A DNA stretch of 64,000 nt, from IMG/VR virus record IMGVR_UViG_3300015371_000015, positions 1-64,000 of that record; one strand, given 5' to 3'. The translations under genes were made by a program, and so were the position numbers. How positions within the stretch are numbered: the first letter of the stretch is position 1; each line of letters opens with the position of its first letter. This DNA is from a virus. Shown piece by piece: positions 34,143 to 57,131 of the stretch. Under the pieces are notes generated by a model that was not told where the DNA came from, did no database searches, and saw only the letters and a list, made by a program, of their open reading frames with translations.

Positions 34143-34171
34143 TCGCGCTGGAAACTGCTACTAAGATGAGA
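34143..34171 (+). promoter_or_regulatory. Class-29 phage promoter, copy 3
   Basis: TCGCG, AAACT in place of AACAA, and TAAGATGAGA. No gene follows for 180 bases; it drives the structured RNA at 34168. Confidence 0.8.
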
Positions 34172-34295
34172 CCCAGAACCCACCGAAGTTCTGGCCTAGC
34201 CTTACTGCCGTATTAAATCGTCCCGAACGATCCAGAACACAAGTTCCTAAGTGCGCTTTAAGAGTGGGCGCACAGGTCTCAACTGTTCATATTTT
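34168..34295 (+). ncRNA. Structured RNA with switching hairpins
   Basis: GAGACC at 34168-34173 pairs with GGTCTC at 34275-34280, closing the molecule, and ATATTTTTC follows. GTTCTGG (34188-34194) can pair with CCAGAAC either before it (34173-34179) or after it (34232-34238), so two folds compete. GTGCGC (34251) pairs with GCGCAC (34268). No reading frame. Driven by promoter copy 3. Confidence 0.6.
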
Positions 34296-34299
34296 TCTC

Positions 34300-34328
34300 T
34301 CGCGCTGATAACAACTACTGTAATGAGA
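34300..34328 (+). promoter_or_regulatory. Class-29 phage promoter, copy 4
   Basis: TCGCG, AACAAC and TGTAATGAGA at the invariant length; directly after the T-run of the upstream RNA. Confidence 0.85.
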
Positions 34329-34350
34329 CCATCCCAGTTTAGGAGCCACC

Positions 34351-35925: not shown

Positions 35926-36339
35926 ATGGGCGAGCGCATCGATCGATTCAAGTCCACGATCAAGGTTGCTGAGGTCAAGGCTCATATCCAACGCAACCAG
36001 AAGGCATACATCACCGGTGGTGTGTGTCTGGCCATCGGCGTTCTCGGGACGCTGGCGGCAGCCAAGAACAACAGCACTACGGTGATCAGCAGCATCGAAG
36101 GCAACCGGAACAACTTCGTCGGAACGGCGGAGCACGTCACGGTCGTTGTTGCCGAGCTTGAGCGACGAGGTCACCCGGGCAACGTCGTGCGTTGTCTCGA
36201 GACGGGCGAAGTGTTCGCCAGTCAGAGGCGCGCCGCAGAGATGCTCGGCGTCAACCCAGGAGAGATCTCGAAGCAGCTGCGCGGTCTGACCGATAAGGCC
36301 GGCGGCTACACCTTCGAGAATCTCGGCGAGGCTGCCTAG
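35926..36339 (+). CDS. Membrane protein with NUMOD1-like DNA-binding end
   Basis: 137 aa from ATG 35926. Residues about 26-46 are hydrophobic (AYITGGVCLAIGVLGTLAAA). Residues about 85-135 read VVRCLETGEVFASQRRAAEM, LGVNPGEISKQLRG, AGGYTFEN, which matches the NUMOD1/IENR1 helix-turn-helix repeat normally attached to homing endonucleases. No nuclease domain is present. A membrane-tethered DNA-binding protein is the inference. Confidence 0.65.
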   Translation: MGERIDRFKSTIKVAEVKAHIQRNQKAYITGGVCLAIGVLGTLAAAKNNSTTVISSIEGNRNNFVGTAEHVTVVVAELERRGHPGNVVRCLETGEVFASQRRAAEMLGVNPGEISKQLRGLTDKAGGYTFENLGEAA

Positions 36340-36368
36340 TCGCGAAAAGAACAAGCACTAAGATGAGA
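36340..36368 (+). promoter_or_regulatory. Class-29 phage promoter, copy 6
   Basis: TCGCG, GAACAA and TAAGATGAGA. Its end is part of the inverted repeat that closes the four-hairpin RNA. Confidence 0.85.
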
Positions 36369-36499
36369 CCCCTCTTACTTGGACGATCATTGCGATAGTC
36401 CTATGCCATCAAGACGATCATTGCGATAGTCGAGCGATCATTGCGATAGCAGGCATGCCCAACGGTCATTGCGACAGTTCGGTAAGTGAGAGGGGTCTC
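36365..36499 (+). ncRNA. Four-hairpin RNA with identical ATTGC loops
   Basis: Closing stem 36365-36380 with 36484-36499 (16 pairs, one G-T). Inside are four hairpins at 36381-36401, 36413-36431, 36434-36450 and 36461-36479. Each has an outer stem of different sequence (GGAC/GTCC, GAC/GTC, GC/GC, AAC/GTT), a G-A mismatch, a 3-bp stem and loop ATTGC. The inner stem is ATC/GAT in three and GTC/GAC in the fourth, a compensated change. ATGCC (36403) and GGCAT (36452) can enclose hairpins 2 and 3. ATTATTTTTT follows at 36525. Confidence 0.8.
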
Positions 36500-36551
36500 A
36501 TCTCTTGGACTTACATCAAGTGAATTATTTTTTCTATCAGCAAGGAGCATC

Positions 36552-36968
36552 ATGAGCAACGATATCGAGGACTTCTTGGCCACCCGTGACCAGTTGTCGA
36601 AGGAGTACGAAGGCATCGGTCTGAGGATCGATGAACTGCAGGCCGAGCTCAACGACCTCAAGGCCCGCAAGCGCCTTCTGGACAAGGCATTCGGCGTGCC
36701 CGTCAAGAAGACGGCGAGGAAGAAGCCGGCTGCCAAGAAGGCCGCACCCAGGGGCGGAAGCACGCCCAAGGACGACCCCAACGTCGAGCGTCTGGTCGAG
36801 CTGCTGAAGGGGTCTCCCACCATGGGGAGGGACGAGATCGCAACCCACTTCCCCAAGCTGGACAGCAAGGGCCTGGGTCTGCTGCTGAGCAAGTGCAAGA
36901 AGCGCGGTCTCATCGACAACGCCGGCGGTAAGCGGCACCCGGCATGGTTCGCTGTGGAGCAGGCATGA
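36552..36968 (+). CDS. Winged-helix-like DNA-binding protein with coiled coil
   Basis: 138 aa from ATG 36552, CAAGGAG upstream. Coiled coil (about 4-50: IEDFLATRDQLSKEYEGIGL), a Lys/Ala/Pro basic linker (KKTARKKPAAKKAAPR) like histone-type tails, then a helix-turn-helix domain (about 78-138: VERLVELLKGSPTMGRDEIA, LGLLLSKCKKRGLIDNAG, RHPAWFAVEQA). Probably a nucleoid-like or regulatory DNA-binding protein. It lies directly downstream of the four-hairpin RNA. Confidence 0.65.
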   Translation: MSNDIEDFLATRDQLSKEYEGIGLRIDELQAELNDLKARKRLLDKAFGVPVKKTARKKPAAKKAAPRGGSTPKDDPNVERLVELLKGSPTMGRDEIATHFPKLDSKGLGLLLSKCKKRGLIDNAGGKRHPAWFAVEQA

Positions 36969-37430: not shown

Positions 37431-37459
37431 TCGCGGTCAAAACAACGACTGTAATGAGA
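37431..37459 (+). promoter_or_regulatory. Class-29 phage promoter, copy 7
   Basis: TCGCG, AACAAC and TGTAATGAGA at the invariant length. Confidence 0.85.
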
Positions 37460-37509
37460 GAGAAGAAGCCAGTAGTCTGGCCTACGCCTATAAGCGTAGC
37501 TTCTCTTTT
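37457..37509 (+). ncRNA. Short three-way-junction leader RNA
   Basis: AGAGAAG near the promoter end pairs with CTTCTCT at about 37499-37505 and encloses two hairpins, CCAG-TAGT-CTGG and CTACGC-CTATAA-GCGTAG. A TTTTT run follows. Same layout as the RNA at 57077. It may be a free small RNA or an attenuator of the downstream gene. Confidence 0.6.
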
Positions 37510-53383: not shown

Positions 53384-53412
53384 TCGCGCGAAAAACAACT
53401 TCTATAATGAGA
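53384..53412 (+). promoter_or_regulatory. Class-29 phage promoter, copy 10
   Basis: TCGCG, AACAAC and a perfect TATAAT followed by GAGA, invariant length. Confidence 0.9.
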
Positions 53413-53508
53413 CGTACTGAAGCCAATCAGTTCAAATGTCGTAAGAAGCCAACTACCGAGCTATCCCTAGCTTAACTGTAGGTTGCGAAGACGACGTCTC
53501 ATTCTTTG
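53408..53508 (+). ncRNA. Structured leader RNA
   Basis: TGAGACGT at 53408-53415 pairs with ACGTCTCA at 53494-53501. Inside are ACTGA-agccaa-TCAGT and a longer arm with CAACTAC against GTAGGTTG (one bulge) capped by AGCTA-TCCC-TAGCT. TTCTTTG follows. It lies between promoter copy 10 and the 53537 gene: small RNA or attenuator. Confidence 0.6.
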
Positions 53509-53794: not shown

Positions 53795-54614
53795 CACTCG
53801 ACTGAGCGAGTCTAAATAGGCCTTAAGCTCAGAGCGGCCCTCTTCGGAGGGTGTGGACTGTCTGGCGAGACAGAACTTTCTCAGCGAAACTGATCTGGCA
53901 TACCGGAATCCGGCGTGCTTGCGGGAGTAGGTGTACAACTGAGGATTGGTTAAACAAAAACACGTGGTGGCAAGTTCGAGGCAGCCCTGGAGTTGGCCGC
54001 TAAGCAGTCGGGTCTCCAGCCCTCTCGGTCTCTGACTCTTCATAGAGAAGAACCGAGGCACTACCACCGCTCGCCCAGCACCTGAGGCGTGCAATAAACG
54101 GGGTGGCCCCAGTATCAGGCCATGTCAAAAGGCACCCCACCTTGACGTATGTCATATTTGTTAGAGACCTAGGAGGTGAGAGCGATGCAAGCCCGAGGGT
54201 TGTAATCACCCTCCTACAAGTCAACATAGTCTTGGTCATGGCAAGGACCCCCATTACGATGGTAAGGCCCCTCCCATGATCATATTCGCATGGAGGCACT
54301 ACACTCCGTGCGGCAAACCCGTCCCCTACAAACACCCAAGCTTCCGCATAGACGGTCATGAACGTAAAAGCGGACTGCTGAACTCTAGTGAGCCCAGACA
54401 ACCTGCGTAGCGGCTTTATGTGGCGCCATCAGGAATCTGCAAGCCTAGAGCAACTGGAGCGGCCCATAGTGGCCTGGTTACAAATGCACGAGACAAGCAC
54501 ACCGGTCAGGTTAATGTATCCATATTCGTTGTGAATCACTGGACTAAACTGAACCGCGTACATGAGGTGAGCTGCCACCATGGTTGATTCCAAGCGCAGT
54601 GAAGTTTAAGCATT
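53795..54614 (+). other. 820-base structured non-coding region
   Basis: No credible reading frame. Many perfect hairpins: CTCGGT/ACCGAG at about 54022-54052 with inner TCTCT/AGAGA; GGGGTG/CACCCC around TGGCC/GGCCA at about 54098-54141; TAGGAGG/CCTCCTA near 54170-54214 with competing GAGGGT/ACCCTC; GCATGGAG/CTCCGTGC at about 54287-54312. Contains CATATTTG and CATATTCG elements at about 54149, 54281 and 54517. Probably several RNAs of unknown class. Confidence 0.55.
53833..54001 (+). ncRNA. Multi-hairpin RNA candidate
   Basis: AGCGG at 53833-53837 pairs with CCGCT at 53997-54001. Inside stand four clean hairpins in a row: CCCTC-TTCG-GAGGG, CTGTCT-GGCG-AGACAG (53858-53873), TCAG-CGAAA-CTGA (53881-53893) and GCATaCCGG-AAT-CCGGcGTGC. 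It is not a match to RNase P RNA or tmRNA by eye. Confidence 0.5.
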
Positions 54615-57050: not shown

Positions 57051-57079
57051 TCGCGAGGAAAACAACGCTTGTAATGAGA
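57051..57079 (+). promoter_or_regulatory. Class-29 phage promoter, copy 12
   Basis: TCGCG, AACAAC and TGTAATGAGA; heads the RNA-only segment 57077-57884. Confidence 0.85.
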
Positions 57080-57131
57080 GGTAGGGTAGTAATACCCGGT
57101 AACCCGCCAGTTACGACCTCTTATTTCTTTG
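57077..57131 (+). ncRNA. Short three-way-junction RNA
   Basis: AGAGGT (57077-57082) pairs with ACCTCT (57116-57121) and encloses GGGTA-GTAA-TACCC and GTAAC-CCGCCA-GTTAC. TATTTCTTTG follows. Same architecture as the RNA at 37457 with unrelated stem sequences. Confidence 0.65.

What the first reader, a model, noticed from the sequence alone, without database searches (positions are those of the whole stretch)
36365..36499. Four-hairpin RNA with repeated ATTGC loops and a 16-bp closing stem
Four hairpins share loop ATTGC and a G-A mismatch while their outer stems differ; the inner stem changes from ATC/GAT to GTC/GAC in the fourth, a compensated change. ATGCC/GGCAT can nest hairpins 2 and 3. This looks like a decoy or scaffold with four copies of one binding site, comparable in logic to protein-sponge RNAs (CsrB type). 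I know of no described family with this loop.
Basis: partly seen in the sequence, partly recalled or inferred. Interest (0 to 1): 0.88.

Follow-up and report, generated by a model that had tools for sequence, protein, structure and literature searches.

The report
Phage hairpin RNA paired with membrane protein
Phages of soil actinobacteria make small RNAs that display two to four copies of one hairpin, and in most cases these sit beside a gene for a membrane protein whose nucleic-acid-reading helix changes together with the hairpin, which points to an undescribed matched RNA-protein pair.

Summary
The four-hairpin RNA is real. At window 36361-36503 a 20-bp stem closes four hairpins that share C[AUUGC]G, with an inner compensated change and varied but complementary outer stems. 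It starts at a phage promoter and matches no Rfam family. The same architecture occurs in phages of Arthrobacter, Gordonia and Rhodococcus and in environmental phages, often in arrays. Each RNA repeats one hairpin module, and the module differs between RNAs. In almost all cases the RNA lies next to (3', 5', or apparently nested inside) a gene for a small protein: one transmembrane helix plus an I-HmuI/NUMOD-like helix-turn-helix. Among near-identical proteins the recognition helix changes when the RNA module changes. Artorias gp55 equals Avazak gp56 over residues 1-95; its ten differences lie in the helix-turn-helix domain, and all three hairpin modules have switched on the same scaffold. Over 30 protein-RNA pairs, helix similarity tracks module identity (p = 0.0004) while the N-terminal part of the domain does not. 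Best reading: a multivalent RNA bound by the neighbouring membrane-anchored protein, as sponge or scaffold. RNA structure is well supported; binding is inferred; the purpose (for example superinfection exclusion) is unknown.

The parts
35926..36339 (+). Gene for the small membrane protein (137 aa): basic N-terminus, one transmembrane helix, variable linker, C-terminal I-HmuI/NUMOD-like helix-turn-helix (recognition helix near residues 108-117, GVNPGEISKQ)
   Evidence: PF22083 E 2.7e-7; phrog_27818 E 6.5e-20, function unknown; confident C-terminal fold, PDB matches 8b6e and 1u3e
36340..36364 (+). Phage promoter: TCGCG (36340-36344), AACAA (36350-36354), -10 TAAGAT (36359-36364)
   Evidence: The same pattern stands before many small genes in the window; relatives use TACACGYCCTATAATGAGA, + strand only in 11 records; reported as a promoter motif in cluster DJ phages (PMC9671010, PMC10868162)
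36361..36503 (+). Multi-hairpin RNA: 20-bp closing stem (36361-36380 / 36484-36503) around four hairpins
36381..36401 (+). Hairpin 1, GGAC-G-AUC[AUUGC]GAU-A-GUCC
   Evidence: covariation
36413..36431 (+). Hairpin 2, GAC-G-AUC[AUUGC]GAU-A-GUC (can alternatively pair with hairpin 3)
   Evidence: covariation
36434..36450 (+). Hairpin 3, GC-G-AUC[AUUGC]GAU-A-GC
   Evidence: covariation
36461..36479 (+). Hairpin 4, AAC-G-GUC[AUUGC]GAC-A-GUU (compensated inner stem)
   Evidence: covariation
36403..36456 (+). AUGCC/GGCAU pairing (36403-36407 / 36452-36456) that nests hairpins 2 and 3
36528..36533 (+). Run of six T about 25 bases after the closing stem, possible end of the transcript (weaker than in relatives, where the T run follows the stem at once)
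   Evidence: sequence; relatives; not called by the terminator scan

Best explanation
The locus encodes a matched RNA-protein pair. A phage promoter drives a 120-145 nt RNA in which one long stem presents two to four copies of a hairpin module: outer stem, a purine-rich mismatch or small internal loop ending in A on the 3' side, a 2-4 bp inner stem, and a 3-7 nt loop (AUUGC here). The neighbouring gene encodes a membrane-anchored protein whose NUMOD-like helix-turn-helix recognises that module; the mismatch would widen the RNA major groove to admit the recognition helix. One RNA can thus gather or sequester several protein copies at the membrane. Shown: the RNA structure, its conservation and covariation, the gene linkage, the co-variation of module and recognition helix. 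Inferred: transcription, direct RNA binding, stoichiometry. Speculative: the output, most likely a polymorphic self-specific control such as superinfection exclusion or an RNA-neutralised membrane toxin.
For: Structure: (z -5.4); hairpin units from four phages, 92% of cells paired, 14 both-side changes, 0/500 shuffles, slid controls near zero; three-hairpin scaffold in eight phages, 98% paired, 11 both-side changes, 0/500. Linkage: L185 was fetched by RNA pattern alone and has the gene within 15 nt upstream; most gene copies have an RNA 3', 5' or inside the ORF linker; among nine held-out gene copies, seven have an adjacent closing-stem RNA, five of them with repeated modules; Poco6 lacks the gene and no RNA was detected in its early region. 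Specificity: identical proteins Avazak/Captrips, identical module; Artorias differs from Avazak only at residues 96-127 and all three modules switch to CCUUUAUGAGG, the module of Perkunas, which has the same helix HSLxKISRN; 30 pairs, helix r = 0.22, p = 0.0004, domain residues 84-107 r <= -0.05.
Against: No transcript or binding data. The domain's solved relatives (I-HmuI, sCTP-23166) bind DNA. The Avazak/Artorias module switch lies in one block of divergence that spans the 3' end of the gene and the RNA, so linkage could contribute. The permutation test corrects for relatedness only through the rest of the domain. Exceptions: L124 has an RNA without the gene; L459, L466 and a divergent third gene copy in Avazak have no visible RNA; Conley shares the AUUGC module with an unlike helix, and L460/L462 share a module with differing helices. 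Several phages carry more RNAs than proteins.
Confidence: 0.57

Rival explanations
1. Decoy or sponge for a host or competitor RNA-binding factor: each module mimics a natural binding site and the multivalent RNA titrates that factor. The membrane gene is only a neighbour.
For: Multivalency; a limited vocabulary of modules shared by phages of different hosts (CAUUGCG in Arthrobacter and Gordonia phages and environmental contigs; CUUUAG and CUUUAUGAG in Rhodococcus and Gordonia phages).
Against: Does not explain linkage to one gene family or the helix-module co-variation. No matching tandem hairpins found in bacterial genomes; look-alikes are an unrelated repeat, GTCATTGCGAGG..GAAGCAATC.
Confidence: 0.15
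2. DNA-level element: the helix-turn-helix binds the repeated modules as duplex DNA (operators or membrane-anchored centromere-like sites), and the hairpins are a by-product of palindromic sites.
For: Relatives of the domain bind DNA; some modules are DNA palindromes (CCGTTATACGG).
Against: Outer stems and the closing stem differ in sequence yet stay complementary, with compensatory changes on both sides; this is not needed for duplex binding. Each element starts at a promoter and usually ends at a T run.
Confidence: 0.13
3. Antisense regulator: the repeated loops pair with messenger RNAs or with complementary loops (kissing).
For: Exposed identical loops in several copies; independent transcription unit.
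Against: No complementary 9-mer in the window and matches in the rest of the genome at chance level (one exact). Repetition and inner-stem identity are not needed for antisense pairing.
Confidence: 0.08
4. Leader or transcription-control element (attenuator, terminator, or put-like RNA acting on RNA polymerase) for the flanking small genes.
For: It lies between a promoter and the next gene, with a T run; HK022 put RNAs also sit just after promoters (from own knowledge).
Against: Relatives have a separate promoter for the next gene after the RNA. A terminator does not need repeated conserved loops. Modules are nearly confined to the neighbourhood of one gene family although each isolate genome has 9-21 such promoters.
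Confidence: 0.07

Closest known systems
Type III toxin-antitoxin systems (ToxIN, TenpIN, CptIN)
   Same: An RNA with tandem copies of one unit beside a small protein gene; matched RNA-protein specificities that diverge between paralogues; found in phages.
   Different: The protein has a transmembrane helix and a NUMOD-like domain and no ToxN-like endoribonuclease; the units are mismatched hairpins inside a closing stem, not processed pseudoknots; the RNA is mostly 3' of the gene.
CsrB/RsmZ protein-sponge RNAs
   Same: Several copies of a hairpin binding site on one RNA.
   Different: No GGA loops; the module changes from RNA to RNA; the putative partner is encoded next door and is a membrane protein.
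OLE RNA with membrane protein OapA
   Same: Structured RNA encoded near a membrane protein thought to hold it at the membrane.
   Different: OLE is about 600 nt with one conserved sequence; no Rfam similarity here.
I-HmuI/NUMOD DNA-binding modules and sCTP-23166
   Same: Same fold and sequence family as the protein's C-terminal domain.
   Different: Those bind DNA, and I-HmuI carries an HNH nuclease; here a transmembrane helix replaces the nuclease and a hairpin RNA is the proposed ligand.
Anti-CRISPR RNAs (Racr)
   Same: Phage RNAs that mimic a repeated hairpin.
   Different: No likeness to CRISPR repeats was noted (not tested systematically); two to four hairpins with different outer stems in one transcript.

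Membership tests
Any Rfam 15 family | Covariance-model match at the gathering score | tested here: not met
   Only Pistol elsewhere in the window; no match at the locus even at E<=10 beyond weak snoRNA noise; none in nine related loci
Type III toxin-antitoxin | RNA made of tandem repeats beside the protein gene | tested here: met
   (repeats are hairpin modules)
Type III toxin-antitoxin | ToxN-like endoribonuclease toxin | tested here: not met
   Pfam and PADLOC give only NUMOD/homing-endonuclease-like hits
Type III toxin-antitoxin | Free protein is toxic and the RNA neutralises it | not testable with these tools
   needs expression in a laboratory strain
CsrB/RsmZ sponge | Repeated GGA-loop hairpins that bind CsrA | tested here: not met
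   Loop is AUUGC with no GGA in the loops
Free-standing homing endonuclease / NUMOD DNA-binding protein | NUMOD-like helix-turn-helix | tested here: met
   PF22083 above its cut-off; folds 8b6e and 1u3e
Free-standing homing endonuclease / NUMOD DNA-binding protein | HNH or GIY-YIG nuclease domain | tested here: not met
   137-aa protein: N-terminal helix, linker and C-terminal domain only
OLE RNP | OLE covariance model and OapA homologue | tested here: not met
   No Rfam match; protein assigned to phrog_27818, function unknown

The most novel reading that the evidence does not exclude
A new class of polymorphic RNA-protein recognition system in actinobacterial phages: membrane-anchored helix-turn-helix proteins, each matched to a multivalent hairpin RNA encoded beside or inside its own gene, with RNA module and protein helix switching specificity together, used for self/non-self discrimination between phages (superinfection exclusion or an RNA-neutralised membrane toxin).
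Probability: 0.4. Interest if true: 0.93.

Novelty: categorically new. Interest (0 to 1): 0.82.

Why it matters
It would be a natural set of orthogonal hairpin/protein pairs read by a small DNA-binding-type domain, in which one can see how RNA recognition specificity evolves step by step: near-identical phages differ by a few helix residues and by the loops of all hairpins. It gives a function hypothesis to an uncharacterised phage protein family (phrog_27818) and to intergenic regions so far described only as promoter repeats. It is directly testable with laboratory Gordonia and Arthrobacter phages such as Avazak, Artorias, Conley and Qui.

Tried and rejected
TCATTGCGA pairs or triplets in bacterial genomes and viral contigs: nearly all are the unrelated widespread repeat GTCATTGCGAGG..GAAGCAATC, so this motif alone does not identify relatives. 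Single CGATCATTGCGATAG matches in 39 viral stretches: chance, no repeated hairpins. AATGAGA-anchored double-CATTGCG search: most of the 34 hits have no such fold; L185, L072/L075 and L047 are real. Anticodon-arm mimicry was considered and dropped: loops lack U33 and vary in length. A rule 'N-x-G in the helix means AUUGC loop' was dropped after L453 and L454 (same helix start, CGUUAAG module). A closing-stem scan inside ORFs did not separate nested RNAs from controls, so the two nested cases rest on the promoter plus fold z-scores. Homologues of the downstream gene 36552-36968: none in the phage collection.

Full report
WHAT IS THERE. The window is part of a 79,660-base virus record; homologues of its proteins are in phages of Microbacterium, Arthrobacter, Gordonia and Streptomyces. 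The motif occurs four times here and nowhere else in the window. The fold is far more stable than shuffles (z -5.4, 0/200). The energy model prefers to pair hairpin 2 with hairpin 3, which only probing can settle. No Rfam family matches.

TRANSCRIPTION UNIT. The RNA begins at a phage promoter, TCGCG-N5-AACAA-N4-TAAGAT-GAGA, a pattern repeated upstream of many small genes in the window. In relatives the equivalent is TACACGYCCTATAATGAGA; TATAATGAGA is present 9-21 times per isolate genome, always on one strand. Cluster DJ phage papers describe this promoter repeat (PMC9671010, PMC10868162, PMC9753669); the passages read do not mention the RNAs. In Qui and the Gordonia phages a T run follows the closing stem and the next gene has its own promoter; in the window the T run lies about 25 bases further on and is less convincing.

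RELATIVES. Arthrobacter phage Qui carries, at the same place after a homologous gene, a closing stem with three hairpins, two of them AAC-G-AUC[AUUGC]GAU-A-GUU. Record G001 carries an array of such RNAs with CAUUGCG in two of them and other modules in the rest. Gordonia phages Conley, Pherobrine and Perkunas, and contigs L072/L075 and L185, have further CAUUGCG RNAs. Other RNAs repeat other modules: CCGUUAUACGG (Avazak), CCUUUAUGAGG (Artorias, Perkunas, Pepy6), GCCGUUUGGGU (Rickmore), CCCGUUAAGGG (L453, L454), CCCUAUUGCAGGG (L460, L462), GCUGCAUUAGCAG (L064). A loop-agnostic detector run on 1.9 Mb of strand sequence found such repeated-module hairpins almost only at these sites, and none in 348 kb of shuffled sequence.

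COVARIATION. In nine hairpin units from four phages, 92% of cells are paired, with 14 both-side changes; 0 of 500 shuffles reach these values and slid controls collapse to near zero. In the three-hairpin scaffold of eight phages, 98% of cells are paired with 11 both-side changes. Outer stems are therefore selected for pairing rather than sequence, which argues for RNA structure and against a plain duplex DNA site. Both structures were read off these sequences, so part of the excess over slid versions is expected; and the shuffles do not model relatedness.

PARTNER GENE. The gene immediately upstream (35926-36339) encodes 137 residues: a basic N-terminus, one predicted membrane helix (from the sequence; relatives are annotated 'membrane protein'), a variable linker, and a C-terminal I-HmuI/NUMOD-like helix-turn-helix (PF22083; phrog_27818; AlphaFold blocks above 90 pLDDT in residues 91-130; PDB matches 8b6e sCTP-23166 and 1u3e I-HmuI, both DNA-binding). 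L185 was found by its RNA alone and has this gene within 15 nt upstream. Qui, Avazak, Artorias, Pherobrine and G001 carry two or more gene-RNA pairs. The RNA lies 5' of the gene in L064 and L072/L075. In L077/L438 and G002/L445 an RNA with its own promoter appears to sit inside the ORF, in the linker between membrane helix and helix-turn-helix (fold z -3.4 and -5.5); a second scan did not confirm these independently. As a held-out test, a new profile scan gave nine further gene copies: seven have an adjacent closing-stem RNA, five with repeated modules, and two have none. Rhodococcus phage Poco6 has neither the gene nor a detected RNA in its early region. Exceptions are L124 (RNA, no gene) and a divergent third copy in Avazak (gene, no RNA).

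SPECIFICITY SWITCH. Captrips gp54 is identical to Avazak gp56 and has the identical module three times. Artorias gp55 is identical to Avazak gp56 through residue 95; its ten differences lie in residues 96-127, five of them in 105-112 (HHLSQISKH to HSLAKISRN), and all three hairpins have switched from CCGUUAUACGG to CCUUUAUGAGG on an otherwise almost unchanged scaffold. Perkunas, with helix HSLQKISRN, has the Artorias module. Gravy, Pherobrine and Pepy6 share both a helix type and the CUUUAG module. Over 30 protein-RNA pairs, recognition-helix similarity tracks module identity after conditioning on the rest of the domain (r 0.22, p 0.0004); residues 84-107 show none, residues 118-133 a weak signal (r 0.12-0.14, p 0.01-0.02). 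Caveats: the Artorias change lies in one block of divergence, relatedness is only partly corrected, and Conley and L460/L462 do not fit a one-to-one code.

MECHANISM. The best-supported reading is that the helix-turn-helix binds the hairpin module of the adjacent RNA. The conserved mismatch next to the inner stem would open the narrow RNA major groove to a helix, as purine mismatches and bulges do in other helix-RNA contacts (own knowledge). With two to four sites per RNA and a membrane anchor on the protein, the RNA would either gather proteins at the membrane or keep them occupied. Many matched pairs and a helix that is among the most variable parts of near-identical proteins suggest selection for distinct specificities, as in self/non-self or toxin-antitoxin systems. 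Which of these it is cannot be told from sequence.

NOVELTY. It shares logic with type III toxin-antitoxin RNAs, CsrB-type sponges and the OLE-OapA complex, but fails a tested defining feature of each. No earlier description was found in the paper searches made, which cover only openly licensed papers. RNA reality about 0.95; matched recognition about 0.57; the specific biological role is open.

Noticed in passing
window 53796-53858 (+): Pistol self-cleaving ribozyme (RF02679, 60.8 bits).
   Followed up: no
window 33324-63808, + strand: A repeated phage promoter, TCGCG-N5-AACAA-N4-TNNAATGAGA, stands before many small genes.
   Followed up: partly
window 34165-34340, 37456-37509, 53406-53503, 57073-57125 (+): Further promoter-driven short RNAs with a closing stem and one to three hairpins but no repeated loops.
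   Followed up: partly
L438 about 1593-1700; L445 about 1596-1703: An RNA gene with its own promoter appears to lie inside the coding sequence of the membrane protein, between membrane helix and helix-turn-helix.
   Followed up: partly
L048 1879-1990, L050 1885-2000, L058 1882-2010: A second conserved RNA type (CCUUGAGUC-hairpin-GGCC..GCACUG..UUGGAAGGUA) next to the same gene, with one variable hairpin on a conserved scaffold.
   Followed up: partly
Genome-contig loci L279-L358: The widespread intergenic repeat GTCATTGCGAGG..GAAGCAATC in many bacterial phyla mimics the CATTGCG motif.
   Followed up: partly
L081 7912-8070 (- strand): A truncated copy of the membrane protein that keeps the membrane helix but lacks the helix-turn-helix, with a structured RNA upstream.
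   Followed up: no
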